A stretch of DNA of 64,000 nucleotides from Nitrosomonas sp. HPC101. Its GTDB lineage: Bacteria; Pseudomonadota; Gammaproteobacteria; Burkholderiales; Nitrosomonadaceae. The notes beneath the pieces were generated by a model that searched no databases, was not told the origin of the DNA, and saw only the letters and a program-made list of their open reading frames with translations. Of this stretch, positions 40,484 to 57,210 are shown in pieces; the stretch's first letter is position 1, and the number at the start of each line of letters is the position of its first letter. A program made the translations under genes and the position numbers. The stretch lies in NCBI RefSeq assembly GCF_009833125.1, contig NZ_QRCC01000004.1, positions 1 through 64,000 on the forward strand, written 5' to 3'.

Positions 40484-40888
40484 ATGCCTGATCCAACGTT
40501 GTGTACTGAAGAAGATATCACACACTTAATCCATGCTTTCTACGCCCGGGTACGGGAGGATAAGGCGCTTGGTTTCATTTTCGATGCGCATATTGATGAC
40601 TGGAACCGCCACCTGGCCAGAATGGTAGATTTCTGGTCATCTATTTTACGCGGTACCGATCGTTTTAGCGGTACGCCAATGCCCAGGCATGTGGCCCTGC
40701 CTGATCTGAACGCCGAATTGTTTCAGCGATGGCTCAAACTGTTCCACCAAACAGCTGCCGAACAATCCAATCAAGCCATGGCGGAACAGGCTTGCATCAT
40801 GGCTGATCGCATTGCCCGCAGTTTGTGGATGGGTTATCAGATCAACCACCATCCCGGTGTCATGCCTGTGGGGCTGTCTCATGGCTGA
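40484..40888 (+). CDS. Group III truncated haemoglobin
   Basis: A 134-residue globin of the 2-on-2 type. It shows EEDITHLIHAFYARVREDKAL, WNRHLARMVDFWSSILRG and MPRHVALPDLNAELFQRWL, the segment that normally carries the proximal histidine. Group III members are proposed to bind or detoxify nitric oxide or oxygen. AGGAGAAG precedes the ATG. The stop overlaps the start of nnrS, which supports a shared NO-related role. Confidence 0.88.
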   Translation: MPDPTLCTEEDITHLIHAFYARVREDKALGFIFDAHIDDWNRHLARMVDFWSSILRGTDRFSGTPMPRHVALPDLNAELFQRWLKLFHQTAAEQSNQAMAEQACIMADRIARSLWMGYQINHHPGVMPVGLSHG

Positions 40889-42104
40889 GTCGGTGCAGAT
40901 CGGAAAACAGCAATTGGCACCGCAATGGGCGGCCTTTCTTAGTCTGGGCTTCCGGCCACTGTATATTGCAGGTTGTTCCTGGGCTGCGATTTCAGTCGCA
41001 CTGTGGATATATGCTCCACAATGGCTGACGGGCATGTTGACCGGTATGTTCTGGCATGCACACGAGATGTTGTGGGGGTTTGTTGCCACTATCGCGGTAG
41101 GATTCCTGTTTACCGCCAGCGCAAACTGGACGGGTCTCAATCCGCTGCATGGCCGTGCTTTAGGTGGGATGGCACTGTTGTGGATCGTGGCACGGGCAGG
41201 TTTTCTTATACCAGGATCAGCGGCATTTGCTATTGCCGCATTCTGTGAGCTGTTGTTCTTCAGTGTGGCGGCACTGGCATTGGGTCGGGTAATTTATCGG
41301 AAACGCAGCCAGCGTAACTACGGTATTCCCCTGCTTGTGCTGGGGCTGGGTGTTGCTGATAGCCTGTTTTTGTGGTTTGTACAAACGGGTGATTACGCTT
41401 TGTTAATGGAGAGCTTTCATGCCGGCTTGCTATGCATGGCAGTAATCGCACTGCTGATTGCACGGCGAGTGATCCCGTTTTTCGCCATGCGGGCAGTACA
41501 GGGCCTGATAATTCCGATGCTTACCAGCAGCGGTCAGTGGCAGCTTGTGGCAAGTATTTTTGCCATTGTATTTCTGTTGCTCGGGTGGGATCTGGTAGCC
41601 GCAGCAGCATTGGCGATAGCCGGAGCTCTTGCGCTGTGGCAGCTGGTTGCCTGGAAGCCGTGGGCTGTTCGGCAAGTGCCATTGCTATGGATTCTTTATG
41701 CCGGATATACCGGGCTGGGTGCCGGATTATGGGTTGCTGCCGCCTATTCGGCAGGCTGGATTTCCCGTGCCGCATGGCCGGCACATACGATCGGTGTGGC
41801 GGGTTTTTCGGTACTGATTATCGGCATGGTCACCCGTACTGCGCTGGGTCATCTGGGGCGACCATTACGTGCTGATCATAGTATGGTTATTTTGTATATA
41901 TTGATTATTACAGCTGCTGTATTACGTCTGGCAGCGTTGCTGCCAACTGCTTATGTGTTGGGTTTGCTGCACGCTTCGGCTGCAATCTGGATATTGGCTT
42001 TTGTGCTCTACCTCTGGCGTTTTTTTCCGATGCTGATCCGTCCGCGCGCAGATCAGTCGCCTCCAGTCGTCAAGCCGGGAAACATTCCGATACAGCCACG
42101 CTGA
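40881..42104 (+). CDS. nnrS: NnrS family membrane protein
   Basis: A protein of 407 residues from the ATG at 40881, with about twelve hydrophobic segments. NnrS hallmarks include LGFRPLYIAGCSWAAISV, FWHAHEMLWGFVATIAVGF and MVTRTALGHLGRPL. The family is a heme- and copper-containing membrane protein that relieves nitric oxide stress. It overlaps the truncated haemoglobin gene by eight bases, so the two are almost certainly co-translated. Confidence 0.92.
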   Translation: MAESVQIGKQQLAPQWAAFLSLGFRPLYIAGCSWAAISVALWIYAPQWLTGMLTGMFWHAHEMLWGFVATIAVGFLFTASANWTGLNPLHGRALGGMALLWIVARAGFLIPGSAAFAIAAFCELLFFSVAALALGRVIYRKRSQRNYGIPLLVLGLGVADSLFLWFVQTGDYALLMESFHAGLLCMAVIALLIARRVIPFFAMRAVQGLIIPMLTSSGQWQLVASIFAIVFLLLGWDLVAAAALAIAGALALWQLVAWKPWAVRQVPLLWILYAGYTGLGAGLWVAAAYSAGWISRAAWPAHTIGVAGFSVLIIGMVTRTALGHLGRPLRADHSMVILYILIITAAVLRLAALLPTAYVLGLLHASAAIWILAFVLYLWRFFPMLIRPRADQSPPVVKPGNIPIQPR

Positions 42105-42206
42105 CGCTATGAATGGAAGATGGGCAGTCTGTCTCTTGCCAATCAGATTGGGTGATGCCAGTGCTGCTGGACAACGTATGAGTATTCAACTAGGAGGATT
42201 CATACA

Positions 42207-42647
42207 ATGAGTTATGGCTTACTGATAACGTTGCATTTGCTGGCTGCAGTCGCTTTTGCGGGCACAGTATTTTTTGAAGTCGTGATGCTTGAAGGTATAC
42301 GCAAACATCTGCCGCGTGAAATCATGCGCGAGGTTGAACGCGCCATAGGTAACCGTGCTGTCAGAATCATGCCTTGGGTACTTTTGGTGCTGTATTCTGC
42401 CGGGATAGGGATGGCGTGGCAGCATCAGGCAGCCTTGGCGCAACCCTTGGCAAGCAGTTTCGGGTTGTTGCTGGGTATCAAGATCATTCTGGCAATTAGC
42501 GTTTTTGGCCATTTTGTGACAGCCATGCTATGGCGGAAGCGCGGTTTGTTAAACAGACAGCGCTCACAACGCCTGCACTTGAGTATATTTTGCCACGTAC
42601 TGGCAATCATCATCCTGGCGAAAGCCATGTTTTATCTGCATTGGTAA
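42207..42647 (+). CDS. CopD-like small membrane protein
   Basis: A 146-residue protein with four hydrophobic segments and AGGAGG upstream of the ATG. The pattern LLITLHLLAAVAFAGTVFFE and the later KIILAISVFGHFVTAMLW with histidines in the first and last helices resembles CopD-like or cytochrome-like membrane proteins that accompany NnrS. The exact family is uncertain. It probably belongs to the same NO-related operon, 102 bases downstream. Confidence 0.65.
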   Translation: MSYGLLITLHLLAAVAFAGTVFFEVVMLEGIRKHLPREIMREVERAIGNRAVRIMPWVLLVLYSAGIGMAWQHQAALAQPLASSFGLLLGIKIILAISVFGHFVTAMLWRKRGLLNRQRSQRLHLSIFCHVLAIIILAKAMFYLHW

Positions 42648-44856: not shown

Positions 44857-45639
44857 TCAACGGCAATGACTGGAATGTGCCTGTTTTGCCTGCTGTCCTC
44901 TCACTTCCAGCCAGGACTGGATATCTTCTGCAATGGTTTGGTAAAGCGGGCGAAAAACTGGGCGCATATTGCTGATGGTACTGCTGATTTCTACCATGGA
45001 TGGGAAACGCAGGCCATGATGTTCAACGGGTGCGCCGATGGGTTCCAGCTGAGCACCCAGTCTGCTGAAGTGGCTGACTAGCCGTTCCTCGGTTAGCATG
45101 AAAAGTACCTTAATATTATGTATGCGTGCCAGTTCGACTGTTCCTATGTAAAGGCCGAGTGGGATATAAGGAAAACGCGTCATCAGACCTGTGCCGAAAT
45201 CCTCTTCAGAAATATTGATGGGATGATTCTTCTCGCCCTTTCTTCGCCGAAAGGAGGCAATGACGGCAAGACGGGAAACCTCACCAATTTTATCAGCTGG
45301 TAGTCTGGATGGATCTATGATGGAACGATCGAGTGTCTGGGCACAGGTTTTCTCGAAAGGCAGGCGTCTGTCGTTATTATTCAATGGTGGACGGATAATT
45401 CGGGTGCAGCCGATAAATGTATCATTGCTGACATTGCGAATCAGAAGATGTAACGAATGCGCATCATGCTCATCCGTCTCAAACCTATCAGGTCGTGAAA
45501 ATTCGAACTGTAGGTCTTCACAATAAACAGAGTGACGGATACGATAGGCCTCGCGCTTCAATTCTTCGGTTAATGCTGGCACGATTTTGAAATATTGCCT
45601 GAAAGAAGTGCCTAAATGGCTGTTTTCCTGGGTCAACAC
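44857..45639 (-). CDS. PEP-CTERM/exosortase system-associated acyltransferase
   Basis: A 260-residue protein starting from GTG. It resembles the LuxI-related acyltransferase family that occurs only in bacteria with exosortase systems (the TIGR03694 type). Visible features are REAYRIRHSVYCEDLQFE at residues 29-46, an arginine-rich core GCTRIIRPP, and the strand KIGEVSRLAVIASFRRR typical of acyl-ACP or acyl-CoA N-acyltransferases. The product is unknown. It faces away from the LolA-like gene's partners but shares their region. Confidence 0.85.
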   Translation of the reverse strand: MLTQENSHLGTSFRQYFKIVPALTEELKREAYRIRHSVYCEDLQFEFSRPDRFETDEHDAHSLHLLIRNVSNDTFIGCTRIIRPPLNNNDRRLPFEKTCAQTLDRSIIDPSRLPADKIGEVSRLAVIASFRRRKGEKNHPINISEEDFGTGLMTRFPYIPLGLYIGTVELARIHNIKVLFMLTEERLVSHFSRLGAQLEPIGAPVEHHGLRFPSMVEISSTISNMRPVFRPLYQTIAEDIQSWLEVRGQQAKQAHSSHCR

Positions 45640-45772
45640 GATCGTGTCCGTTTAGTAGGTTATTGAAAGTTTTTTAGAGGTTTGTGGCAGTAAAACAATC
45701 AGGCAGGAAAACTTTCTGGCTGTGCCGTCAATAACTCCATTCGCTATTATTGGGTTCGATTAGTTTGTCGGA

Positions 45773-46558
45773 TTATTCGAGTCTTTTCAGATAGTCCTTG
45801 GTAAAAATTTTATCCGGCAGATCACGCAACTTCATATCCGAGTAATCAAGCACCGAAACTTCACCTGACTTCAGAGCATCTTCCATAATGATGCGGGTCG
45901 GACGTTCTTCTCCAAGAATGGTATTAAAATTTTCGTAATGGCTGGTCTTGAGTAAACGGCCCGAAACAGAGTAGAACTCTGCTTTAAACGGCCTGAAACT
46001 GGATTGATTAACCCATAACAGTACTTTCTGGTAGGTAACCGAGCGATCTACACCTGTCAGTTCAAGTACATAAAAATCTTCGCCATCAATTGATTCATTA
46101 CGTAACAGCTGTGGGTGATAGTCGCCGGTAAAATTAGCGCGAGCAATGTCGCCATTGGCAACCTGGCCTGTTAAACGCTGGGAAAGGGCCAGTCGTATTG
46201 GTTGTGAAACACTGGGCATAAAAATCCACAGATCGCGTCCTTTCATGAGGATGGTCTGTCCACGTTCGGAAGCCGGTTCAATAATTCTGATAATGCTGTT
46301 TTCATTCCCCTTGGAAAGTACCTGATAACGGTACATGTCTTCAGAATGATCAGGAGTCGTGGTACGGATAACGACATCGACCTGGAAGCTCTCTCGTGGG
46401 AAGCGAATTTCATCCGCCCTTTCCAGTATACTTTCAGCCGTAATATCAGTTTTTACAGCAGCCTTTTCAATCTCTATTGAAGTTGCCAATGCGATTTGCC
46501 CCTGGATCAATAAAATAAAATTGACAATCAGTGCAAACCATAGCGGGCGTAAATTCAT
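45773..46558 (-). CDS. LolA-like outer membrane lipoprotein-sorting protein
   Basis: A 261-residue protein with a signal peptide (hydrophobic LWFALIVNFILLIQGQIALA). The mature part fits the LolA-like family found beside MacB/LolCDE-type transporters: DQMLxRAD-type start SILERADEIRFPRESFQVDV, MKGRDLWIFMPSVSQPIR and RNESIDGEDFYVLEL. These proteins are thought to carry lipids or lipoproteins through the periplasm. It is divergent from the ABC ATPase with 71 bases between. Confidence 0.82.
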   Translation of the reverse strand: MNLRPLWFALIVNFILLIQGQIALATSIEIEKAAVKTDITAESILERADEIRFPRESFQVDVVIRTTTPDHSEDMYRYQVLSKGNENSIIRIIEPASERGQTILMKGRDLWIFMPSVSQPIRLALSQRLTGQVANGDIARANFTGDYHPQLLRNESIDGEDFYVLELTGVDRSVTYQKVLLWVNQSSFRPFKAEFYSVSGRLLKTSHYENFNTILGEERPTRIIMEDALKSGEVSVLDYSDMKLRDLPDKIFTKDYLKRLE

Positions 46559-46629
46559 ATTTAATCTCCATAAGCAGCTCGTACAATTTATTCAGACTGT
46601 TTTAAGTATATTCATTCAGGATCAGGTAA

Positions 46630-47322
46630 ATGAATGTTGTCCATTTTGAAAATGTATTCAAGGAATATACCTTAGGTGACAGCCAGGTTCACGCACTGAA
46701 AAATATCAATCTAAAAATCGAGGATGGTGAATTTCTCGCTATTGCCGGTCCTTCAGGCAGTGGAAAATCTACTTTGCTTAATTTGATCGGTTGTATCGAT
46801 ACGCCTTCTTCCGGGAAGATTTATATCAACGGTCAGGATACGAGCGGACAAACACCTGATCAGTTATCAGAACTCAGAGCTAGAACCATAGGCTTTATTT
46901 TTCAAACGTTTAATCTTTTTTCAGTTCTGTCAGCTGAAGAAAATATTGAATATCCTTTGCTGCAATTCAAGGAATTGGACACCGCGAAACGTTGTGAACG
47001 GATTGTAAGATTTCTTGACATTGTCGGATTGAAAGCGTTCGCTCGCCATCGTCCTAACCAGCTTAGTGGTGGTCAGCGCCAGCGCGTTGCCATTGCCCGG
47101 GCACTTGCCACTGAGCCTAAAATTATTCTGGCAGATGAGCCGACAGCCAATCTGGATCATAAGACTGGTGAAGGTATTCTACAACTGATGAAGGAAATCA
47201 ACCGTAGCAGTCATACAACTTTTATTTTCTCAACCCATGATACTAGGGTCATGGCGGTGGCAGATCGCCTGGTGCATATTGAAGACGGACAGCTTATCGA
47301 AGGGAGTATTGCTTCTGTCTGA
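46630..47322 (+). CDS. ABC transporter ATP-binding protein (LolD/MacB type)
   Basis: A 230-residue ATPase with Walker A GPSGSGKSTLLN, Q-loop IFQTFNLFSVLSAEEN, signature LSGGQRQRVAIARALATEP, Walker B IILADEPTANLDHKTG and the switch histidine STHD. Sequence and length place it in the LolD/MacB/FtsE group that pairs with FtsX-type permeases, two of which are nearby at 48938-50149 and 50800-52032. It likely powers export of a lipid or lipoprotein-like substrate. Confidence 0.9.
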   Translation: MNVVHFENVFKEYTLGDSQVHALKNINLKIEDGEFLAIAGPSGSGKSTLLNLIGCIDTPSSGKIYINGQDTSGQTPDQLSELRARTIGFIFQTFNLFSVLSAEENIEYPLLQFKELDTAKRCERIVRFLDIVGLKAFARHRPNQLSGGQRQRVAIARALATEPKIILADEPTANLDHKTGEGILQLMKEINRSSHTTFIFSTHDTRVMAVADRLVHIEDGQLIEGSIASV

Positions 47323-47459
47323 CTAAGGCAAGGTCATGTCCAGATTGTTTTATTCTTTGGATTGTTTCATACCAGATAAGATGATGTTCGCAAAAACAAA
47401 TTTATTGTCTTTGAGGCTTGCGCATAAGCAGCTCATTGAATCTAAAAAAGATTTTCTGC

Positions 47460-48911
47460 ATGGTTTTGAACAAAAAAGATAGCCCAATGACTGTTCCGAG
47501 TAGCGTTGTTGCAGTTCTGGCATCGTTGCTGCTGATGTTATGGGGAACGATGCCAGAATGCGATGCTGCTGATATGGATTCCGGTAAAAGACTGCCATCC
47601 TTTATGGGGAACCAGGCAGATGTCAATCAGGTGGCACAGGCTTTCACGTTGGACGATCTGTTTGAGGAAAACAGTGTGGATAGCAGTAAGCCACAACAAC
47701 CGTTCCATCCAACTGCTTCATGGCGTGGATTTTCACAACTGGAATTTGCTGAAACGATTGCTAATCCAAAGCATGCTTCCAAATTACGCCTGCGTTCAGA
47801 ATTGTCAAATCTTGGTCAATTGAGTCCGAATATAAAATGGAAGCTCAGCGCCCGTGTTGATTATGACGCAATTCACGATATATCGGATTTTTATCCGCGA
47901 CAGGTGCGTGGAGATCATCGGTTCGAGTTTTTTCTGCGAGAGAACTATCTGGATGTATCTGCTGCTGATTTCGATTTTCGTATTGGGCGTCAGCATATCG
48001 TCTGGGGGGAAATGGTCGGACTGTTCTTTGCGGATGTCGTATCTGCCAAAGATATGCGTGAATTTGTACTGCCTGATTTCGATATCATGCGTATTCCGCA
48101 GTGGGCTGTTCGTGCCGAGTACACGAAAAATGACTTTCATGCCGACCTGATCTGGATTCCATTTGCCAGCCTGGACGAGGTCGGTCGGCCCGGCGGTGAT
48201 TTTTACCCGTTCAAATTGCCGTTTACAGCGCCCGTCAGTTTTCTCAAAGAAGATCGATCCGGGCGTAATATCAGCAATTCAAACTATGGGATTCGCCTGT
48301 CGCAATTGATAAATGGCTGGGATGTTTCAGCATTCTATTATCACAGCCTGGATGCGACACCCACTTTTCACCAGATCAGTCAGCCCTGGGAACCACTGTT
48401 ATTTCAGGCACAGCATAATGAAATTGACCAGGCAGGCGGAACTGTTACTAAAGATCTTGGGCCAGCCGTGCTTAAAGGCGAGTTCGTCTATACCCATGGG
48501 CGTCGTTTTAACGTCGCCCGTCTGGCGCCGCCGGAGGGCCTGGTACAGCAGGATACAATCGACTATGCGCTGGGGCTTGATTTTACTTTGCCGCTGGATG
48601 TGCGAATGAATCTGCAGTTTTTCCAGCGAGCTTATCTGAATTATGATCGTGACATTTTTCAGGATCGATTGGAAAGTGGCGGCAGTATTTTCCTGCAGGG
48701 TGATTTATGGCGCAATTTTCAGGGGCAAATATTGTTGATTCACAGTTTTAATCGCGATGAATGGATGTTGCGTCCGCGCCTGACCTGGAATTTTTCAAAA
48801 AATTGGAAACTGGCAGCCGGTGCCGATATTTTCAATGGCCCGGCAACTGGATTATTGGGTCGATTTAACCAAAGTGATCGGGTCTACACCGAGCTGCGTT
48901 TCTCTTTTTAG
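47460..48911 (+). CDS. Outer-membrane beta-barrel protein (DUF1302-like)
   Basis: From the ATG at 47460 the product has 483 residues; starts at 47418 (TTG) and 47487 (ATG) are possible. A signal peptide with the core VVAVLASLLLMLWG is followed by a long beta-rich region with alternating hydrophobic strands, FDFRIGRQHIVWGEMVGLFF, and a C-terminal phenylalanine (YTELRFSF) as in outer-membrane barrels. It resembles DUF1302-type porins that accompany LolA-like proteins and exporters. Predicted role: outer-membrane exit for the exported product. Confidence 0.75.
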   Translation: MVLNKKDSPMTVPSSVVAVLASLLLMLWGTMPECDAADMDSGKRLPSFMGNQADVNQVAQAFTLDDLFEENSVDSSKPQQPFHPTASWRGFSQLEFAETIANPKHASKLRLRSELSNLGQLSPNIKWKLSARVDYDAIHDISDFYPRQVRGDHRFEFFLRENYLDVSAADFDFRIGRQHIVWGEMVGLFFADVVSAKDMREFVLPDFDIMRIPQWAVRAEYTKNDFHADLIWIPFASLDEVGRPGGDFYPFKLPFTAPVSFLKEDRSGRNISNSNYGIRLSQLINGWDVSAFYYHSLDATPTFHQISQPWEPLLFQAQHNEIDQAGGTVTKDLGPAVLKGEFVYTHGRRFNVARLAPPEGLVQQDTIDYALGLDFTLPLDVRMNLQFFQRAYLNYDRDIFQDRLESGGSIFLQGDLWRNFQGQILLIHSFNRDEWMLRPRLTWNFSKNWKLAAGADIFNGPATGLLGRFNQSDRVYTELRFSF

Positions 48912-48937
48912 AAAGAATGTGTCGAAAAAATTTACAC

Positions 48938-50149
48938 TTAAATAGTCTGCCGTAATGCGTCGACGACCGGTATACGTGAGACGTGCCTGGCAGGCAGAAT
49001 CGCCGCCAGTACGGTAGCAGTAAAACCGATAATCAATGCGAGCAGCAGAACAGAAGGTACGATCTGAATGTGCGCTGTATAACCCATATCCGCATTAGGT
49101 GGAGGTGGCATTGGAACTCCGATTGCAGAGATAACCAAAGCCAGCAATATACCCACCCCCACGCCCAGACTGCCGCCGATTAGCCCGAGCAGCAAATTCT
49201 CGCTGATGATCAACTGGAATACCTGACTGCTGCGATTACCTAAAGCCATCATCGTTCCGAATTCGCCCACACGTTCGAAAATACTCATATTGACGCTGTT
49301 GGCGACACTGAGCAGTACCATGACCAGGATAATGATCTGCAGCACACCGAACTGACCTTTGTACAGCTCCACTGTTTTTTTATAAAAATCGTTTAACTCT
49401 ACCCAGGTTTTAATTTCCATACCGGATGAAGCCAATGTCTGTTTCAGTTTTGTGGTGACTGCATCTGTTGTTTCAGTTCTCTGTAGTAAAACTACCAGCG
49501 CATTCACACCATCTGTACCCAGTAATTCTTGCGCCGCAGCCAGCGGAATGCGGATGGCACGCGCATCAAAATCATTGGAAAAACTCTGAAAAATACCAGT
49601 AACTTCAAAATCCAGACTGTTGAGCGCACCATCCAGTGTATTGACCAGCAGCGTTACCGGATCGCCCGGCTGTAGCTGCAGCGCCTGTGCGACGCCCTTT
49701 CCCAATAAAATACCGAATGTATCCTTATCTGCCAGCTGCTGCCCCCTGACAATCCGGACTGAACTGCCCAGTTTTGCTTCCGGATCAGGCTCTACGCCCT
49801 CACCAATAATAGGCAGATCACTTTTGCCGTTGTTGAGTAATCCAGAAAAATTGAGCCGTGCCATGACTTGCTCAACCCCTTCTTCACTGGCAATGCTTTG
49901 TTGTAAGGATTGTGGAGATTCAATCAGATATTTTTCTGGTGAACGTGAGCCGGCGGCAAAATAGCCTTGGCGATATACCTGCAGATGTCCGCTTTGCGAG
50001 TGGATAAGCGCCTCCCCGAGCTGGGTATAAATATCATGCACCCATCCGCCTGCCAGAATAATGCCAGCAACTCCGGCAATGATTGCCGCCAGCGTCATCA
50101 GCGTATGAATTTTCTGGCGGAAAATATTGCGTAGTGCGAGTTTGAACAT
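48938..50149 (-). CDS. ABC transporter permease, FtsX/MacB (LolCE) type, copy 1
   Basis: The start MFKLALRNIFRQKIHTLMT at 50149 gives 403 residues; an ATG at 50188 adds 13. One N-terminal hydrophobic segment, a large periplasmic MacB_PCD domain, and three C-terminal segments form the FtsX layout. The region PMPPPPNADMGYTAHIQI and the end RIPVVDALRQTI closely parallel the second permease at 50800-52032, so the two are paralogues that may form a LolCE-like heterodimer. It is convergent with the barrel gene. Confidence 0.88.
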   Translation of the reverse strand: MFKLALRNIFRQKIHTLMTLAAIIAGVAGIILAGGWVHDIYTQLGEALIHSQSGHLQVYRQGYFAAGSRSPEKYLIESPQSLQQSIASEEGVEQVMARLNFSGLLNNGKSDLPIIGEGVEPDPEAKLGSSVRIVRGQQLADKDTFGILLGKGVAQALQLQPGDPVTLLVNTLDGALNSLDFEVTGIFQSFSNDFDARAIRIPLAAAQELLGTDGVNALVVLLQRTETTDAVTTKLKQTLASSGMEIKTWVELNDFYKKTVELYKGQFGVLQIIILVMVLLSVANSVNMSIFERVGEFGTMMALGNRSSQVFQLIISENLLLGLIGGSLGVGVGILLALVISAIGVPMPPPPNADMGYTAHIQIVPSVLLLALIIGFTATVLAAILPARHVSRIPVVDALRQTI

Positions 50150-50327
50150 GGCTTTCCGAAATATGTAAGGTTGTAAAAAACTGTGCAAACTAGCCTATAT
50201 TTTAGTTACTGCGGATAAGCGGCTGGAATCAAATTGATTTATGGTAATCAGAGTTTGACATAATGTACCAGTTAAGAATGACTTGTATAACTTCCATGGT
50301 TCCACCGATATACCCAGCGCGATCATT

Positions 50328-50655
50328 ATGAAACAGCTGATATTAAACGTGATGCTTTCGTCTATTCTCTGCAGACTCAAACCAGACTGACTGGCAATTT
50401 ATGCCTTCGGTAGCCATATTCAAGGCATAGCCAGGTTGGATAGTGATCTGGATCTGGCTGTACTGGTAGGGGGCTATGCTGATCCCTTGACCCTGTTTGA
50501 AGTCGGGAATGAACTGGCAGATGTGGCAAGGTTATGCAGTTGATCTGCTCAATCTGCGAGCTGCTTTCACCGTAATGCGGTACCAGATTATTACCACTGG
50601 CAGTACTTCAGGCGGCTGTTCTATTTCAATAACAGAAGAGTTGTCTTGTGATTAA
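50328..50655 (+). pseudogene. Decayed MNT-type nucleotidyltransferase (antitoxin-like)
   Basis: Starting at the ATG at 50328 the frame reads MKQLILNVMLSSILCRLKPD, an in-frame TGA, then LAIYAFGSHIQGIARLDSDL and DLAVLVGGYADPLTLFEVG, and after a frameshift VDLLNLRAAFTVMRYQIITTG. These are the GSxxxG and SDxDLAV motifs of MNT-domain nucleotidyltransferases, such as MntA of HEPN-MNT toxin-antitoxin pairs. The stop and frameshift show it is inactive. No HEPN partner was seen nearby. Confidence 0.8.
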
Positions 50656-50659
50656 AACG

Positions 50660-50728
50660 TCGCAAATGATGGACGATCCGGCTCTATTTTTCGTCGTTGC
50701 GAAATCCATGGGATTGAAGTAATCCAGT
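50660..50728. repeat. Second partial copy of the intergenic repeat
   Basis: The segment contains TTCGTCGTTGCGAAATCCATG and ends GAAGTAATCCAGT, identical over 13 bases to the right end of the repeat at 43262-43363. The left end is degraded. It lies between the decayed MNT gene and the second permease. Confidence 0.45.
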
Positions 50729-50799
50729 AGTAATAATAATGGATGCATTGCATTCACTCGATCAGATCTATTTCCTTCTGAAAATGCACAGCATATATT

Positions 50800-52032
50800 T
50801 TACCGGTTATGCCTTAACGCATCGACAATCTGCATACGGGATGCTTTCCATGCCGGATAAACGCTGGCGATCAACGTCACAAAAACAGCCAGCGTCAATG
50901 CCTCTAATACCATGTTCGGCTGGATAAGAATTTCTCCAATATAGCCGCGCGCCATACCGGGCGGTGGTGGCATCGGAATGCCGATCTCAGAAATAACCGC
51001 CGCCAGCAGCAGGCCAATTAGCACGCCCAGCGTACCGCCTATGCACCCAATCAGCATACCTTCCCACAGGAACTGCCGCAAAATATTGATTTTCTTTACG
51101 CCCAATGCCATAGCCGTCCCGATTTCACCCGTACGCTCCATCACATTCATCGTCATGGTGTTGGAAATACCCAGCAGAATAATAATAGCGATGATCAATT
51201 TGATCGCCTGCACCTGCTTCGTGAATAGCACCGTCGTTTTATTGTAAAAATCAGCCAACTGATACCAGGGAACGATTTCAAAACGCTCCGATGGTAATTT
51301 GTCACGTAACGCCGCCAGTACAACATCCGTCTGGTTTGTATCGTTTAGCAACACCACCCAGCTGTGCGTGCCCTCGGTGCGTAATAATTTTCTGGCTGTA
51401 TTAATTGGCAGACGTAGCGCGCTATCATCATAGGATTTGGTCACCGTGGTAAATAACCCGCCCACCGTCATTTCTACCGCATTGATCCCGCCGGTTGCGG
51501 TATTGGCCAACAACACAACGGTATCGCCAGCTACTACACCGAGATTGCGCGCCAGCCCAGCACCCATAATCAATTGATTTGGATAATCGGCAGCTAAATG
51601 CTTTCCAGCTACAATCTGCAATGCATCGCTGAAATATATTTTCTCTTCAGGATCTACCCCTTCGCCAATAAACGACAATGTTGCCTCATTGTGACTGATC
51701 AGACCGTTGAAGCTCAGGCGCGGTACGATAGCCTTAATTGGCATGTCCCCATCATCAAATGTAAAATTTTTCGACAGTTTTTGCGCCAAATCATCCGAAA
51801 ACAGAAAATGATACGGATCAGCTTTGCCGGTCGCAAAATAACCGGGTTTAACGATTTGCAGATGGCCCAGTTGAGAATGAATGGTTGTTTCGCGAAAATC
51901 TTGAAGAATCCACTGAATGAAGCCACCTGCAAGCAGCAGTGCGATCATGCCAAAAGCAACCGTACCAACGGATACAGCACTACGGCGTGTATGGCGAGAC
52001 AGATTGCGGAAGGCCAATTTAAGCTGGGACAT
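50800..52032 (-). CDS. ABC transporter permease, FtsX/MacB (LolCE) type, copy 2
   Basis: A 410-residue permease with the same layout as copy 1: LKLAFRNLSRHTRRSAVSVG at the N-terminus, a periplasmic domain with HLQIVKPGYFATG, and three C-terminal membrane segments with GIPMPPPPGMARGYIG. It ends MQIVDALRHNR. The paralogues are separated by a decayed gene and a repeat, so an original tandem pair was probably split by insertions. Likely partner of the ATPase at 46630-47322. Confidence 0.88.
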   Translation of the reverse strand: MSQLKLAFRNLSRHTRRSAVSVGTVAFGMIALLLAGGFIQWILQDFRETTIHSQLGHLQIVKPGYFATGKADPYHFLFSDDLAQKLSKNFTFDDGDMPIKAIVPRLSFNGLISHNEATLSFIGEGVDPEEKIYFSDALQIVAGKHLAADYPNQLIMGAGLARNLGVVAGDTVVLLANTATGGINAVEMTVGGLFTTVTKSYDDSALRLPINTARKLLRTEGTHSWVVLLNDTNQTDVVLAALRDKLPSERFEIVPWYQLADFYNKTTVLFTKQVQAIKLIIAIIILLGISNTMTMNVMERTGEIGTAMALGVKKINILRQFLWEGMLIGCIGGTLGVLIGLLLAAVISEIGIPMPPPPGMARGYIGEILIQPNMVLEALTLAVFVTLIASVYPAWKASRMQIVDALRHNR

Positions 52033-52129
52033 AAATTTAGCTTGAAGTTATTTACATTAAAACGGCAGTGTACAAATGATTCACTGTAAATCAATCCGGA
52101 AAACCAGATAAAACAGGTGAGTAACCGGT

Positions 52130-52210
52130 ATGAAAACATATATGACTGATACTTGTGAAATAGATGAATTTCTTTACCAAATAAAATATTTTCAGAGTTG
52201 TGATAAATAA
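52130..52210 (+). CDS. 26-residue ORF upstream of the E1-like gene (possible leader or precursor peptide)
   Basis: An ATG with AGGTGA nine bases upstream opens a 26-codon frame that starts MKTYMTDTCEIDEFLYQ and ends QSCDK before TAA. It contains two cysteines and is acidic and aromatic. It ends 14 bases before the ThiF-like gene and is in a different frame. It could be a leader peptide, a peptide substrate of the adenylating enzyme, or chance. There is no homology evidence. Confidence 0.3.
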   Translation: MKTYMTDTCEIDEFLYQIKYFQSCDK

Positions 52211-52224
52211 CCAGGTTGGAAATA

Positions 52225-53100
52225 ATGAACTATTTTGATTATAAAGCCGCATTTTCACGCAATATTGGCTGGGTAACCGAAGCCGAGCAAATATCATTAC
52301 AAGGTAAACGTATTGCCATTGCCGGGATGGGCGGTGTTGGAGGAGGACACTTATTGACTTTGGCGCGTCTGGGTATTGGCGCATTCAATATTGCCGATTT
52401 TGACACATTCGAAATTGGCAACTTCAACCGGCAAGCAGGCGCAACTGTATCTGCCCTGGAAAAACCCAAAGTCGAAGTGCTAGCCGACATGGCGCTGGAC
52501 ATCAACCCTGATCTTGCTATCCGGCAATTCAAGGAAGGTGTGAATGAGACTAACATCGATAATTTCCTCAAAGATGTTGATCTGTATGTGGATGGATTGG
52601 ATTTTTTTGCTGTTTCTGCCCGTCGGGCAACCTTCGCTGCATGTCAGCGCTTGGGGATTCCAGCTGTTACTGCTGCACCATTAGGAATGGGGGCCGCTAT
52701 TCTTGTTTTTTTGCCAAAAAAAATGTCTTTTGAAGAATATTTTTGTCTGGAAGGGTGTGATGAACAGGAAATGCTGATTCGCTTCCTGATTGGTTTATCT
52801 CCAGCAATGTTGCAGATGGGTTATCTGGTTGATCCATCTCGCGTTGACTTTTTGAGGCATAAAGGTCCATCAACCATAATGGCATGCCAGCTTTGCAGTG
52901 GATTGGCTGCAACTGAAGCGCTAAAAATACTGCTTAATCGTGGAAAAACAATAGTCGCCCCCCATGGTTATCATTTTGATATTTACCGGAACAGATTTGT
53001 GAGAACTTGGCGACCGGGAGGAAACCGTAATATTCTTCAACGAATTACGTTGAGAGTGGCCCGTAAAATACTTTCACGCACGGACGCTTATGGAGAATGA
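52225..53100 (+). CDS. ThiF/MoeB (E1-like) adenylyltransferase family protein
   Basis: A 291-residue E1-like enzyme. The ATP site is GMGGVGG at residues 34-40, acidic residues ADFD follow near 57-60, and the arginine finger region is GNFNRQ near 65-70. One CxxC (MACQLCSG) is seen near residue 228; a full pair of CxxC zinc motifs was not found. Such enzymes adenylate a carboxylate on a protein, peptide or small molecule. The gene is directly followed by a nitroreductase, an arrangement fused in mycobacterial MoeY. Confidence 0.85.
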   Translation: MNYFDYKAAFSRNIGWVTEAEQISLQGKRIAIAGMGGVGGGHLLTLARLGIGAFNIADFDTFEIGNFNRQAGATVSALEKPKVEVLADMALDINPDLAIRQFKEGVNETNIDNFLKDVDLYVDGLDFFAVSARRATFAACQRLGIPAVTAAPLGMGAAILVFLPKKMSFEEYFCLEGCDEQEMLIRFLIGLSPAMLQMGYLVDPSRVDFLRHKGPSTIMACQLCSGLAATEALKILLNRGKTIVAPHGYHFDIYRNRFVRTWRPGGNRNILQRITLRVARKILSRTDAYGE

Positions 53101-53101
53101 C

Positions 53102-54178
53102 ATGCCTGACTACGATATATTACATAAGATTCTTGATCTGGCACGCTGGGCTCCCAGTGGGGATAACACCCAGCCATGGCGGTTCGAGATTATCGATCAT
53201 AATCATGTTGCGATACATGGCCATGATACACGTGACTGGTGTCTGTATGATTTTGAAGGACGAGCCAGCTATATGGCACATGGTGCATTACTTGAAACGA
53301 TACGAATTGCAGCAACCGGGTATGGTTTAAAAGCTGTTTGGGTGCTCCGAGCGGAGACATCAGCTACTGCACCAATTTATGATGTTGAATTTGAACCGGA
53401 TTCAACACTCATGCGTGATCCATTATATCCATTCATTGAGGTGCGTACTGTTCAGAGGCGGCCAATGAGGACCACTCCACTGACTGCAAATCAACGTACT
53501 GCTATACAGATTGCAGCAGGTGAAGATTACACCGTACAGTTTTTTGAAACGCTGGCAGATCGATATGAAGTAGCGAAGCTGCTCTGGCAGAATGCACATA
53601 TCCGGTTGACTTGCCCGGAAGCCTATGTGGTACATAAGCAAATCATTGAATGGGGAGTAACTGTAAGCCAGGATCGTATACCGGAGCGTGCTGTGGGAGT
53701 AGATCCCTTAACAGCTTGCTTGATGCGCTGGGTCATGCAAAGTTGGGATCGCTTGGATTTTTTTAACCGTTATCTGTTTGGAACAATTGCACCACGTATT
53801 CAACTTGATTTTCTGCCAGCAGTATTTTGTGCTGCTCATCTGACTATTAAAACAGTGAAGGTACCGGAGACATTGATTGATTTTGTTTCAGCAGGTATGG
53901 TGATGCAGCGTGTGTGGCTGACTTGTACAGCCAACGGATTGTTTCTACAGCCTGAGATGACTCCTGTCATTTTTAACTGGTATTCCTCTCGAAAAATAAA
54001 GATATCTCGTTTGGATGCGGTCAATCAGGAAGTGGATAAGCTGGCGAAAAAATTTCATGCATTTTCAGGATCCAGAACAGAGCAGAACGTTTTTATGTGT
54101 CGTATCGGAATCTCATCACACCCAAGCTCACGTTCAGCGCGTCTATCATTGAGCGATCTGATGTGGAGACTTGAATAA
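53102..54178 (+). CDS. Nitroreductase family protein, partner of the E1-like enzyme
   Basis: The ATG at 53102 has GGAG seven bases upstream, within the end of the ThiF-like gene, and gives 358 residues. The FMN-binding signature RWAPSGDNTQPWRFEI is at residues 15-30. The protein is longer than a simple nitroreductase and carries a C-terminal extension ending SLSDLMWRLE. In natural-product systems such FMN enzymes oxidise azolines or other adducts; the substrate here is unknown. Spacing shows it is co-transcribed with the ThiF-like gene. Confidence 0.85.
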   Translation: MPDYDILHKILDLARWAPSGDNTQPWRFEIIDHNHVAIHGHDTRDWCLYDFEGRASYMAHGALLETIRIAATGYGLKAVWVLRAETSATAPIYDVEFEPDSTLMRDPLYPFIEVRTVQRRPMRTTPLTANQRTAIQIAAGEDYTVQFFETLADRYEVAKLLWQNAHIRLTCPEAYVVHKQIIEWGVTVSQDRIPERAVGVDPLTACLMRWVMQSWDRLDFFNRYLFGTIAPRIQLDFLPAVFCAAHLTIKTVKVPETLIDFVSAGMVMQRVWLTCTANGLFLQPEMTPVIFNWYSSRKIKISRLDAVNQEVDKLAKKFHAFSGSRTEQNVFMCRIGISSHPSSRSARLSLSDLMWRLE

Positions 54179-54248
54179 ACGTCGGTTTTTTTTACACGCC
54201 GAGAAAAATAAATACATTTTATGCGCTAAGTATATGATTGTTAATGCA

Positions 54249-54265
54249 TGGCATGAGTTGTGCTT
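54249..54265 (+). promoter_or_regulatory. Sigma-54 promoter for the PEP-CTERM gene
   Basis: TGGCATGAGTTGTGCTT has the GG and GC elements separated by exactly ten bases, matching TGGCAY-N5-TTGCW with one difference. It lies 45 bases before the ATG of the PEP-CTERM gene. Exosortase systems commonly encode a sigma-54-dependent regulator, which makes this site plausible. Confidence 0.65.
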
Positions 54266-54309
54266 ATATATGACTGGGAGTGCCCGTAAATTAATTTCTG
54301 GAGATAAAA

Positions 54310-55134
54310 ATGGAATTTAGAAAAATAGCATTAGCGGCGGTGCTGACAGGTTCTGCTGCACTGGCGAGTGTTCCGGCCCAAGCAGGTTGGGAAATTTTGG
54401 ATGCATGGCAGATGAATCTTTCAGGGGGAAATAATAATAATATCGGTCATCTGGTCGTAGGTGGGGGGTTTAGTACGGTTACCCAAGAGCTGGATGCAGC
54501 AGGTGAAGTTTTTGTTGGCGCAAAATTTACCAACCTCGGAGGGTTATTCTCTATCACTTACTCAAGTGAAAATGTCCCAGGAAGTGGTGATTTTGGGCCA
54601 CTATCAGTGTTGACTAATCAAATCCAGTATAGTTTTTCTGGTTTAGCTGGTACGGTCACTGGTATTAGCTCGACTGGTGAAATTAGTTTTTCATACACTC
54701 CTGGAGTTGGTAGCATTACTCTTCAAGAACTTGGTGGGCCGACTATAGCTACTCTTTCCATAGCTGATCCTTCTGGCGGAAAGATAGGTAGCTTTATCGG
54801 GACGACGGACGTAAGCGGAACATCAAATATAACTGCTGAGTTATCAACTGAGACCTATGCTAATCTATTTCAGGATATTTCCGGGAAAAACCTGTTGCCT
54901 GGGGAGATAAGATTTGCACTTGATACTACAAATAAGTATCGGCCGGGAAGTCCACTAGCTGTTGCTTATGGTTGTGATTTTAGTGCTGCTGGTTTATGTG
55001 CTGATATTAGTCTAACGCAAGAAGGTAGTGTGAATGCATTGGTCAGAACCTCTAATGTACCGGAACCTGCCACGCTGGCTTTGCTGGCCTTGGGCATTTT
55101 GGGGATGGGTGCTGTAACGCGTAGAAGAAGCTGA
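54310..55134 (+). CDS. PEP-CTERM sorting domain protein
   Basis: A 274-residue secreted protein. A signal peptide (IALAAVLTGSAALASVPAQA) is followed by a Gly/Ser/Thr-rich beta-type region and, at about residue 250, the PEP-CTERM signal VPEPATLALLALGILGMG ending in RRRS. The exosortase cleaves this signal and the protein is likely exported to the surface or biofilm matrix. The exosortase gene is not in the window. GGAGA precedes the ATG, and a sigma-54 promoter lies upstream. Confidence 0.95.
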   Translation: MEFRKIALAAVLTGSAALASVPAQAGWEILDAWQMNLSGGNNNNIGHLVVGGGFSTVTQELDAAGEVFVGAKFTNLGGLFSITYSSENVPGSGDFGPLSVLTNQIQYSFSGLAGTVTGISSTGEISFSYTPGVGSITLQELGGPTIATLSIADPSGGKIGSFIGTTDVSGTSNITAELSTETYANLFQDISGKNLLPGEIRFALDTTNKYRPGSPLAVAYGCDFSAAGLCADISLTQEGSVNALVRTSNVPEPATLALLALGILGMGAVTRRRS

Positions 55135-55150
55135 TATTAGTTTTGTTATG

Positions 55151-55185
55151 AATTAAAAAGCCCCGATAAACGGGGCTTTTTAATT
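55151..55185. terminator. Bidirectional rho-independent terminator
   Basis: A perfect 15-base inverted repeat AATTAAAAAGCCCCG / CGGGGCTTTTTAATT around ATAAA, with T-runs on both strands. It lies between the convergent PEP-CTERM and desaturase genes and serves both. Confidence 0.92.
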
Positions 55186-55202
55186 CTCGTGTTCTGGTGC
55201 GT

Positions 55203-56183
55203 TTAATTGCTGAGAGTAATAGCTGTTTGTATCTTCGTGCCACGATTTTGCAGATATTTCAGGTATGGCAGATAACCGTGGAACACTGCATCCTCATTGA
55301 TCAGATTCTCGCGCTTAAAGATTTCATGAACTTTGGGCAGGTTACACCAAGCAACTCCTGGAAAATAATGATGATAAGCATGCAACGTAAAATTCAGATT
55401 AGGCAAGATCAGCTTCTCCCACCACCGTAAAATGATCAGTGGAGATGATTCAATAATACTTGCCGCCGGTTTTCCATAAATATGCTCACAGACCGCACCC
55501 AGTCGCACAATTAAAGGAGTGAAGGCAGCAAGTGGCAGCACCCAGTAAATCAGAAATATCGGCCAGATTGCAAAGTAAGTCAGTAACGCAGCAGCTGTTA
55601 TATAAAAAACGGGTTGTAACCATTCGGGGGCAGGGTGTAATCGCTTATAAACAGTCTTATTTTCAAGTCGCTTGCCTTTCAGGATTTTATAGAGACTGAT
55701 TCCGCACAGATCGCTCAGGCATAGTTTGATCAAATGCCGGGTAGGCATCGGAAATGTCCAATCTGGACCGGACTTGCGCAAGAAATCCGGATCATCTTCA
55801 GTGAAATAGTATTTGTGATGTGACAGATGGACCCTGGCATAATCTTCTACTGTAATTCCTATCGGGTAAGCAGCCAGAATATTGGTCAGAATGTCGCCAT
55901 AACGCCCTCGTAAACCGAGTTGATGCACCTGTTCATGCGCCAGTAATCCCAAAATATTGAATCGTGTGGCGATGATTGGGATGGCTAAAATGGTCATCCA
56001 GATGTTATCAACGTGGATTGACAGCACAATAACCGCGATGATTACGCACCAGGCGCTGATAATTTGCGCAAAAAATACCAGTGGCCGTGCACCACTTAAC
56101 ATTTGAATTTCTTTGCGCGCCTGATCGGATAAAGCAGTTTTATCGGCAGATAAGGCTGGCAGAAGATAAGCTGGTTTATTCAT
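55203..56183 (-). CDS. Membrane fatty acid desaturase
   Basis: The start MNKPAYLLPALS at 56183 has GAGG upstream and gives 326 residues; an ATG at 56219 adds 12. Three histidine boxes are present: HEQVH at 83-87, HLSHH at 119-123 and HAYHH at 268-272, with hydrophobic segments between. The family inserts double bonds or hydroxyl groups in lipid chains. The substrate is unknown. Its place beside an N-acyltransferase suggests it may act on the acyl chain made in this region. Confidence 0.88.
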   Translation of the reverse strand: MNKPAYLLPALSADKTALSDQARKEIQMLSGARPLVFFAQIISAWCVIIAVIVLSIHVDNIWMTILAIPIIATRFNILGLLAHEQVHQLGLRGRYGDILTNILAAYPIGITVEDYARVHLSHHKYYFTEDDPDFLRKSGPDWTFPMPTRHLIKLCLSDLCGISLYKILKGKRLENKTVYKRLHPAPEWLQPVFYITAAALLTYFAIWPIFLIYWVLPLAAFTPLIVRLGAVCEHIYGKPAASIIESSPLIILRWWEKLILPNLNFTLHAYHHYFPGVAWCNLPKVHEIFKRENLINEDAVFHGYLPYLKYLQNRGTKIQTAITLSN

Positions 56184-56349
56184 AATCTCTACCTCGTTGA
56201 TTTCTTCGTGAGTTTCCAAAAGGCAGATGTAACTCCGTCTCTGGTACTCATTTACAACGGCACGATTATGAATAAGCTAAATGAGTTTGTAGTACTTTCA
56301 GAAAATTTGGATGATAACCTCAAATCTGATGATGGCTGAGATCCATTCT

Positions 56350-57210
56350 TTATATAGAAGAGATAGGGTTAGCTTGTCTTTCTTGAATAATATGGATAAT
56401 TTCTTTTTCTTTATTCTTGGAAACGAAGTACGGATAAATACTTCTGCTTTTGTATTCAGTCCGTTCAGCTAACGCAGCTATTTGTTCTTTCATATATTCC
56501 ATATTCAGCTGGAGTAATACTGCGGGCGCATCGACGCGCGGACAGGTACGCAGCTCCCCGATCTGCTTAAAGCCCAGCATGCGTTTATAAAAAACAGCGT
56601 GGCGTGGGTTGATCTCAACAACAGCGTCGCTGGCATCGTGCAGATAGTGACCTAAAATGTGAGCTGTGTGAAATATGCAAGCAAATATCTCTTTTGAGCT
56701 GGTTTCCGGGCTAAATGCGAGTTTTGAAACTTCAAAAAGTTTGCGGCCCTGTTTGCGAAATTGGTCTAATTCTTTTTTATACAACGTATCAGCCAGCAAC
56801 CCGTCATCTGAATCAATGGTTAACGTTAGTGTGCCGATAAGCTGCCGCGATCGACGTGCTTCTAAAGTGTATTGATTGGAGGATGTTGAAAAAACAGAGG
56901 TATTTTCAGTCTGGTAACCACGTGAGGCATACATGCGTTTGATGAGTGTACTAGCTTTGATGCGCTGCTTGAGCGAGTTGACCAGGTGAATACTGTAGCC
57001 GTTACGTTGCAGTAGGCAGTCTGTTTCAGTTATGCGATTCGGATTATTGCTGTTTGGGTGCTTGAAGGTTTGGTATTTTCGGGGGCGGGGGAATTGCTGA
57101 TAGGTATTGTTAGGTGAGAGAGAATCGGGTTGGTGAAAGTGAAGCGGAATATGTGCTGGCTGAATGTTTTGTGCTGTGATCCCTGGTTGAAGATGATGCG
57201 CAGTTTGCAT
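56350..57210 (-). CDS. FeeM-like N-acyl amino acid synthase / acyltransferase
   Basis: A 286-residue GNAT-like protein. The first 70 residues are polar and unconserved; the catalytic part starts about residue 75 with SIHLVNSLKQRIKASTLIKR and includes RQLIGTLTLTIDSDDGLLAD, LFEVSKLAFSPE and HAVFYKRMLGFKQIGELR. This pattern matches the FeeM group, which transfers fatty acyl chains from ACP to amino acids. A sigma-54-type promoter lies 115 bases upstream on the same strand. Confidence 0.8.
   Translation of the reverse strand: MQTAHHLQPGITAQNIQPAHIPLHFHQPDSLSPNNTYQQFPRPRKYQTFKHPNSNNPNRITETDCLLQRNGYSIHLVNSLKQRIKASTLIKRMYASRGYQTENTSVFSTSSNQYTLEARRSRQLIGTLTLTIDSDDGLLADTLYKKELDQFRKQGRKLFEVSKLAFSPETSSKEIFACIFHTAHILGHYLHDASDAVVEINPRHAVFYKRMLGFKQIGELRTCPRVDAPAVLLQLNMEYMKEQIAALAERTEYKSRSIYPYFVSKNKEKEIIHIIQERQANPISSI

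What the first reader, a model, noticed from the sequence alone, without database searches (positions are those of the whole stretch)
44857..57210. Candidate pathway for an acylated amino-acid or peptide metabolite with its own export machinery
Seen in the sequence: within 12.4 kb lie two different GNAT-like N-acyltransferases, a LolA-like periplasmic protein, a LolD/MacB-type ATPase, a DUF1302-like outer-membrane barrel, two FtsX-type permeases, an E1-like adenylating enzyme, a nitroreductase, a PEP-CTERM protein and a fatty-acid desaturase. Family knowledge: FeeM-type enzymes make N-acyl amino acids; LolCDE/MacB-type ATPases and permeases move lipids, lipoproteins or metabolites outward; E1-like plus FMN enzymes modify carboxylates and heterocycles. 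Inference: the locus makes and exports an acylated product linked to the exosortase system.
Basis: partly seen in the sequence, partly recalled or inferred. Interest (0 to 1): 0.78.

Follow-up and report, generated by a model that had tools for sequence, protein, structure and literature searches.

The report
Lipid-making genes with own exporter
This stretch of what is probably an ammonia-oxidising bacterium's DNA holds a conserved gene set that most likely joins a fatty acid to an amino acid, closes the product into a reactive ring and carries it out through both membranes; the chemistry resembles a recently described lipid pathway, while its tie to a dedicated exporter appears to be new.

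Summary
The grouping is real. Of 300 genomes of the order, 23 carry both the E1 gene and the paired-permease type, and in all 23 the two lie on one contig within 12.7 kb, in 13 genera. Twenty control stretches from 20 of those genomes held no synthase, E1, oxidase, permease, LolA, barrel or MMPL match.

The enzymes match the acyl-oxazolone pathway type (OxzAB, TyzACB, TrzAS): N-acyl amino acid synthase, ThiF-type cyclase, Acg-like flavin oxidase. The three window proteins match successive parts of one fused family. The other half is a trans-envelope pump: LolA-like carrier, DUF1302 outer-membrane barrel, and a LolCDE-like ABC transporter that is not LolCDE. In other relatives an MMPL/RND pump replaces the ABC part, never both in 100 loci. 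Many relatives lie in exosortase-A regions, but 24 of 52 sampled loci show no pump nearby.

Best reading: synthesis and export of an N-acyl (dehydro)amino acid or its oxazolone. The chemistry is known; the coupled, swappable exporter is the new part. No expression or metabolite evidence exists here.

The parts
44857..45639 (-). N-acyl amino acid synthase of the PEP-CTERM/exosortase-associated family (TIGR03694)
   Evidence: 283 bits against a cut-off of 112; a second copy in this genome at G000:C1:37591
45773..46558 (-). LolA-like periplasmic carrier
   Evidence: PF17131 175 bits; PDB 3BUU, 'Uncharacterized LolA superfamily protein NE2245', E 5e-133 over residues 35-261
46630..47322 (+). ABC ATPase of the LolD/MacB type, not LolD itself
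   Evidence: ABC_tran 124 bits; 222 bits to LolD against a cut-off of 308, true LolD on contig C2
47487..48911 (+). DUF1302 outer-membrane beta-barrel (ORF from 47418; 47487 is the likelier start)
   Evidence: PF06980 46 bits; AlphaFold2 model with mean pLDDT 75, mostly strands; nearest solved folds porins and AlgE
48938..50149 (-). FtsX/MacB-type permease 1 (ORF up to 50188)
   Evidence: FtsX 61 bits, MacB_PCD 70 bits; 95 bits to LolCE against a cut-off of 362
50800..52032 (-). FtsX/MacB-type permease 2
   Evidence: FtsX 73 bits, MacB_PCD 58 bits; 113 bits to LolCE against a cut-off of 362
52216..53100 (+). ThiF/E1-type adenylating enzyme, predicted oxazolone cyclase
   Evidence: PF00899 141 bits; PRK08223 447 bits and E1 part of PRK14851, PRK14852 and Rv1355c families; ATP-site residues shared with ThiF 1ZFN and conserved in 21 rows
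53090..54178 (+). Acg-like flavin-dependent oxidase, predicted amino-acid alpha-beta desaturase
   Evidence: Whole-length match to the oxidase half of Rv1355c/TrzS, 111 bits; model pLDDT 86, best solved match 2YMV; only PF00881 match found in this genome
54310..55134 (+). PEP-CTERM protein (exosortase substrate)
   Evidence: TIGR02595 25 bits against 16; one of four PEP-CTERM matches found in the genome
55203..56219 (-). Membrane FA_desaturase-fold protein, desaturase or hydroxylase
   Evidence: PF00487 121 bits; next to FeeM, E1 and oxidase on one strand in L101
56350..57210 (-). FeeM-type N-acyl amino acid synthase
   Evidence: PF21926 172 bits; FeeM structure 2G0B E 1.5e-12; N-terminal part of PRK14852

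Best explanation
The locus encodes synthesis and trans-envelope export of an N-acyl amino acid lipid of the oxazolone / dehydroamino acid type. (1) One of two N-acyl amino acid synthases (TIGR03694 or FeeM type) joins an acyl chain to an amino acid (inferred from family). (2) The ThiF-type enzyme spends ATP on the carboxylate and closes the ring to an oxazolone (inferred from TyzB, OxzB and TrzS; nucleotide-binding residues shown here). (3) The Acg-like flavin oxidase removes two hydrogens next to the carboxyl carbon with O2 (inferred from TyzC and TrzS). (4) The membrane FA_desaturase-fold enzyme adds a double bond or hydroxyl (guess). (5) ABC ATPase and two FtsX-type permeases lift the amphiphile out of the inner membrane, the LolA-like protein ferries it across the periplasm, and the DUF1302 barrel passes it into or through the outer membrane (inferred from anatomy and conserved linkage). 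In relatives an MMPL/RND pump does the inner-membrane step. The setting in exosortase-A/PEP-CTERM regions suggests that the product acts at the cell surface or in the extracellular matrix.
For: Fused families: FeeM, ThiF and oxidase of the window match positions 81-229, 313-588 and 610-778 of the 989-position PRK14852 (57, 256 and 34 bits), the last two also PRK14851 and Rv1355c = TrzS. Chemistry of TrzS, TyzACB and OxzAB from papers. ATP-site residues. Oxidase model nearest to Acg homologue 2YMV. Linkage E1-permease 23 of 23 genomes within 12,649 bases. Synthase in 46 of 52 and oxidase in 42 of 52 E1 loci of the order sample. One-strand runs that join enzymes and pump: L058, L111, L101, L128. 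ABC and MMPL never together in 100 loci; the barrel of MMPL loci is homologous to the window's (hhalign probability 99.6, 375 columns). Pump kept beside a synthase in 6 of 8 fetched loci without E1. Controls 0 of 20.
Against: No product has been seen. Related producers with synthase, ThiF and nitroreductase yielded only open-chain dehydrotyrosines, no oxazolone. Tyrazolone was found in cell pellets and tryptazolones mostly inside cells, which does not look like export of the ring form. 24 of 52 order-sample loci have no ABC or MMPL pump in the fetched stretch, 14 of them in full 19.9-kb stretches. Oxidase absent in 10 of 52 and not found in the Nitrosospira locus L036. Pump without any synthase in L135 and L136. 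Patchy in the genus: 3 of 37 genomes strongly positive. The five strand groups in the window need several promoters, and the promoter scan gave no more sites than shuffles.
Confidence: 0.58

Rival explanations
1. Enzymes and pump are linked, but the pump carries another cargo of the exosortase-A system (a lipid, lipoprotein or exopolysaccharide part). The N-acyl amino acid is made for the same matrix and leaves by itself.
For: XrtA-cluster genes in 30 of 52 E1 loci; pump with XrtA-cluster gene but no synthase in L135 and L136; 24 of 52 E1 loci without a pump nearby; acyl-tryptophan accumulates in supernatants of actinobacteria that lack this pump type as far as the paper says.
Against: The pump lies beside a synthase in 6 of 8 loci without E1 and in one-strand runs with synthase and E1.
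Confidence: 0.27
2. The end product is the open-chain N-acyl dehydroamino acid (kyonggic, thalassotalic or stieleriacine type); the ThiF ring is only a passing intermediate that makes desaturation easier.
For: No oxazolone seen in those producers although they carry ThiF and nitroreductase genes; in TrzS cyclisation comes before desaturation.
Against: Acid and alcohol extraction destroys oxazolones, so they may have been missed; this is a sub-case of the best explanation and leaves the export claim untouched.
Confidence: 0.45
3. The ABC part with the LolA-like protein is a second copy of the lipoprotein-sorting Lol system.
For: Best family matches are LolC/E, LolD and a LolA-like family.
Against: 95, 113 and 222 bits against cut-offs of 362, 362 and 308; true LolCE (517 bits) and LolD (330 bits) lie on contig C2; conserved company of synthase, E1 and a dedicated barrel.
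Confidence: 0.05
4. The genes stand together by chance.
For: Alternating strands, and a decayed foreign fragment between the two permeases at 50391-50543.
Against: Linkage in 23 of 23 genomes of 13 genera; 0 of 20 controls.
Confidence: 0.01

Closest known systems
Acyl-oxazolone pathways OxzAB (Pseudoalteromonas rubra), TyzACB and TrzAS (Mycobacterium tuberculosis)
   Same: N-acyltransferase + ThiF-type cyclase + flavin-dependent oxidase of the nitroreductase superfamily, adjacent or fused; tyz lies beside mmpL9, an RND/MMPL gene
   Different: Here with a LolA-like carrier, an outer-membrane barrel and an ABC exporter, a second synthase, a desaturase-fold enzyme and a PEP-CTERM gene; product unknown
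Synthase + ThiF + nitroreductase clusters of kyonggic acid, thalassotalic acid and stieleriacine producers (PMC12479983, section read)
   Same: Same three enzyme types in Pseudomonadota and Planctomycetota; a PEP-CTERM gene inside the Stieleria maiorica cluster
   Different: The passages read describe no exporter; only genes putatively involved in biosynthesis are shown there
PEP-CTERM/exosortase-linked N-acyl amino acid synthases (Craig et al. 2011; not held, seen cited)
   Same: TIGR03694 synthase near PEP-CTERM genes
   Different: Here coupled to ThiF, oxidase and pump; whether that paper mentions them I could not check
AmeABCD of Castellaniella defragrans (PMC6394551, passages read)
   Same: DUF1302 outer-membrane protein + LolA-superfamily periplasmic protein + inner-membrane pump for hydrophobic molecules
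   Different: RND (HAE3) pump and a second periplasmic protein AmeC; LolA part is DUF1329; monoterpene setting. The MMPL form of the present module is the closer analogue
LolCDE / LolA
   Same: ATPase, two FtsX-type permeases, LolA-fold carrier
   Different: Scores far under the family cut-offs, true LolCE and LolD elsewhere in the genome, dedicated barrel

Membership tests
Acyl-oxazolone biosynthesis (Oxz/Tyz/Trz) | N-acyl amino acid synthase beside ThiF | tested here: met
   Two synthases; a synthase in 46 of 52 E1 loci of the order sample
Acyl-oxazolone biosynthesis (Oxz/Tyz/Trz) | ThiF-type cyclase with intact ATP site | tested here: met
   Glycine loop, NxNRQ, Lys85, Asp126/129 aligned with ThiF 1ZFN and conserved in 21 rows
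Acyl-oxazolone biosynthesis (Oxz/Tyz/Trz) | Flavin oxidase of the Acg/FDO kind, adjacent or fused to ThiF | tested here: met
   11-base overlap; Rv1355c/TrzS family match over the whole length; fold nearest 2YMV
Acyl-oxazolone biosynthesis (Oxz/Tyz/Trz) | FDO-A subcluster and TyzB/TrzS subcluster placement; catalytic Asp217/Arg540 of TrzS | not tested
   No TyzB, TyzC, TrzS or OxzB sequence was fetched
Acyl-oxazolone biosynthesis (Oxz/Tyz/Trz) | Makes an oxazolone | not testable with these tools
   Needs mass spectrometry
LolCDE lipoprotein release | Permeases and ATPase above the LolCE and LolD family cut-offs | tested here: not met
   113, 95 and 222 bits against 362, 362 and 308
AmeABCD-type export cassette | DUF1302 barrel and LolA-superfamily periplasmic protein | tested here: met
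   PF06980 and PF17131
AmeABCD-type export cassette | HAE3-type RND pump | tested here: not met
   ABC transporter instead in the window; MMPL/HAE3-like pump in 17 of 100 relatives' loci
Exosortase-associated acyltransferase TIGR03694 | Family cut-off, and an exosortase in the genome | tested here: met
   283 bits against 112; XrtA at G000:C5, 346 bits; four PEP-CTERM matches

The most novel reading that the evidence does not exclude
The exported oxazolone is a ready-activated acyl donor: ATP is spent in the cytoplasm to make a reactive lipid ring, the pump carries it to the ATP-free cell surface, and there amines or hydroxyls of exosortase-processed proteins or of the exopolysaccharide open the ring and become lipid-anchored. 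This would explain why an ATP-dependent cyclase, a trans-envelope pump and the exosortase-A system travel together. Only the linkage and the known opening of the ring by alcohols and acid speak for it; the acceptor is speculation.
Probability: 0.1. Interest if true: 0.92.

Novelty: new variant of a known kind. Interest (0 to 1): 0.62.

Why it matters
Acyl-oxazolones and N-acyl dehydroamino acids are newly described bacterial lipids whose fate and role their discoverers call open. This locus offers a conserved, exchangeable export route from the enzymes to the outer membrane, in organisms that are probably harmless environmental bacteria. It gives a candidate cargo to the uncharacterised LolA-like structure 3BUU and to DUF1302 barrels, parallels the tyz-mmpL9 neighbourhood in another phylum, and ties the pathway to the exosortase-A system. 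Each step can be tested by single gene removals and mass spectrometry.

Tried and rejected
Rejected: LolCDE copy (scores under cut-offs, true set elsewhere). Rejected: RiPP of the azoline (TOMM) kind, which E1 plus a flavin enzyme first suggested: none of the 10 proteins matched a YcaO family, and the E1 and oxidase fit the oxazolone families; no separate YcaO or precursor-peptide search was run. Rejected: general nitroreductase; the oxidase is the only PF00881 match found in the genome and matches TrzS over its length.

Led nowhere: promoter scan, 23 sites against a mean of 26.2 in shuffles; terminator-like sites 18 against 11.8, sd 3.6. Barrel fold search gave generic porins and AlgE. The DNA of the gap between the permeases has no second copy in the genome.

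Limits. L079 was dropped from the named set because only an end fragment matched. The 48 named loci hold at most 10 kb on each side of E1, so absent genes there mean little: L049 counts as pumpless while the same record as L081 shows the permease pair. The permease threshold (best hit E<=1e-85) was set, and that search scored at most 6 candidates a genome. Three further genomes with E1 and a weaker single permease (G111, G191, G305) are not linked. G141 has one permease beside E1 and the other 0.88 Mb away. The PEP-CTERM counts use a pattern of my own. The E1 tree is a quick one with SH-aLRT support only and long branches. On MMPL loci: the first barrel scanned gave no Pfam match at E<=1e-5 (L064); of 8 such barrels 4 match DUF1302 at E<=0.1, and homology to the window barrel rests on the profile comparison.

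Literature: searches in the held open-access library listed no paper that joins this pathway to a LolA/barrel/ABC or MMPL exporter, apart from the mmpL9 neighbourhood discussed in PMC10404671. Only that library was searched, and Craig et al. 2011 and the OxzAB paper are not held or were not read.
Full report
What is there. The genome is 2.52 Mb in 31 contigs. It is probably a Nitrosomonas: the carrier protein nearly equals PDB 3BUU, protein NE2245 (NE tags are those of N. europaea, recalled), and the best named E1 relative is a Nitrosomonas eutropha MAG at 80%. All eleven genes of the finding are intact at the stated places. They form five alternating-strand groups: synthase and LolA-like (-); ATPase and barrel (+); two permeases (-); E1, oxidase and PEP-CTERM (+); desaturase-like and FeeM (-). 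The E1 and oxidase frames overlap by 11 bases.

The enzymes. NCBIfam PRK14852 is a 989-position fused family: the window's FeeM matches positions 81-229 (57 bits), its ThiF 313-588 (256 bits), its oxidase 610-778 (34 bits). PRK14851 fuses the last two. Genes that are separate here and one protein elsewhere are strong evidence for one pathway. The oxidase also matches the oxidase half of the Rv1355c family over its length (111 bits) and the ThiF the E1 half (70 bits). Rv1355c is TrzS, shown to cyclise and desaturate N-acyl-tryptophan with ATP and O2 (PMC12856293: abstract and two Results sections read). TyzACB and OxzAB work alike (PMC10404671: abstract, first part of Results, Discussion and passages read). 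The ThiF keeps the glycine loop, NxNRQ, lysine and aspartates that align with ThiF 1ZFN; they are invariant or nearly so in 21 rows. The oxidase model (mean pLDDT 86) has 2YMV, an Acg homologue, as best solved match (E 7e-13), the structure that the TrzS authors also name as closest. It is the only PF00881 match found in this genome. FeeM matches the FeeM structure 2G0B.

The pump. The LolA-like protein has a structural-genomics relative, 3BUU; one paper of the library mentions it, in passing. Permeases and ATPase resemble LolC/E and LolD but score 113, 95 and 222 bits against cut-offs of 362, 362 and 308; the true LolCE and LolD of this genome lie on contig C2 with 517 and 330 bits. The DUF1302 protein is predicted as a beta-barrel (mean pLDDT 75) whose nearest solved folds are porins and AlgE. 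A precedent for a DUF1302 protein with a LolA-superfamily protein and an RND pump is AmeABCD (PMC6394551, passages read).

Linkage. Of 300 genomes of the order, 53 carry the E1 (E<=1e-40) and 51 any permease match (E<=1e-30). With a best permease hit of E<=1e-85, 32 genomes qualify (counted by me) and 23 of them have the E1. In all 23 the two genes lie on one contig, 89 to 12,649 bases apart, in 13 genera and 11 families (counted from the codes). In G141 the second permease lies 0.88 Mb away. Shared genomes expected by chance are 5.7; hypergeometric 4e-13, not corrected for kinship. Three more E1 genomes with a weaker single permease are not linked. Nine qualifying genomes lack the E1; one of them (G035) has its contig end at the permease. 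The other 8 were fetched: all 8 hold LolA, ATPase, barrel and both permeases, and 6 hold a synthase. So the pump tends to follow the synthase even where the E1 is absent.

Neighbourhoods. 52 E1 loci of the order sample besides the window were labelled with profiles. Synthase in 46 of 52, oxidase 42, permease pair 21, full ABC set with ATPase, LolA, barrel and pair 18, MMPL 6, MMPL with LolA and barrel 5, XrtA-cluster genes 30, desaturase-like gene 4. One more locus (L080) has a single permease, so 28 of 52 show a pump and 24 do not, 14 of these in full 19.9-kb stretches. In the 48 named loci: synthase 36, oxidase 35, permease pair 10, full ABC set 3, MMPL 11, MMPL with LolA and barrel 10, XrtA genes 20. 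None of the 100 loci has both pump types. One-strand runs: L058 (Thioalkalivibrio) synthase, E1, LolA, barrel, MMPL; L111 synthase, LolA, barrel, MMPL, fused E1/oxidase; L101 ATPase, barrel, FeeM, desaturase, E1, oxidase; L128 E1, LolA, barrel, MMPL. The barrel of MMPL loci is homologous to the window's (hhalign probability 99.6, E 1e-24, 375 columns), although only 4 of 8 match DUF1302. Twenty control stretches from 20 of the same genomes gave no synthase, E1, oxidase, FtsX, LolA, barrel, MMPL or PEP-CTERM match, only three ABC ATPases and one acyl-CoA ligase. PEP-CTERM proteins by my pattern: 28 of 52 order-sample loci, 14 of 48 named, 5 of 8 without E1, 0 of 20 controls.

Pump swapping. On a quick tree of 85 E1 sequences the ABC and MMPL labels need at least six changes, and one well-supported sister pair differs (L127 ABC, L128 MMPL; SH-aLRT 99). 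The window E1 groups with G141 and Nitrosospira (82 and 87), while that of G034, same genus and nearly the same gene set, groups with three loci of another family (L102-L104; 100). This points to transfer between lineages. In one search only 3 of 37 genomes of the genus have a strong E1 match (one search adds G141), so the trait is patchy.

Exosortase. One exosortase was found in this genome, XrtA on contig C5, beside chain-length and kinase genes. A second TIGR03694 synthase lies on C1 beside a PEP-CTERM-box response regulator and exosortase-A ligase and decarboxylase genes. Many relatives have the module near XrtA-cluster genes. The link of such synthases to PEP-CTERM genes is published (Craig et al. 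2011: not held, seen cited).

Judgement. The enzyme half is a new member of the acyl-oxazolone / N-acyl dehydroamino acid pathways. Its conserved union with a full, exchangeable trans-envelope pump in exosortase-A settings is, as far as the nine listed searches show, not described. Chemistry is missing: no product has been seen, related producers gave only open-chain dehydrotyrosines, and tyrazolones and tryptazolones were found mainly with cells.

Noticed in passing
window 50150-50799, frame 50391-50543 (+): A 650-base gap between the two permeases, which abut in many relatives, holds a short frame with a nucleotidyltransferase-like GSxxxG...DSDLDL motif (motif recalled), probably a decayed foreign antitoxin-type gene. 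No second copy in the genome.
   Followed up: partly
L106 6877-8087 (G034): The second permease of the same-genus relative G034 appears as two separate frames, so it is broken or misassembled there.
   Followed up: no
L101 15337-16410: A second oxidase-like gene (190 bits) follows the oxidase on the same strand in G234.
   Followed up: no
G000:C1:37591 (L142 9484-10383): A second TIGR03694 synthase lies beside exosortase-A-associated ligase and decarboxylase genes and a PEP-CTERM-box response regulator, far from the pump genes.
   Followed up: partly
G141:C1 431937-436047 and about 1309956-1318088: In the close relative G141 the module is split: E1, oxidase and permease 2 at 0.43 Mb, permease 1 and a TIGR03694 synthase at 1.31 Mb.
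   Followed up: no
window 40484-42647: By eye, genes that look like a truncated haemoglobin, an NnrS-type membrane protein and a CopD-like protein, fitting nitric-oxide handling in an ammonia oxidiser; no family search was run.
   Followed up: no
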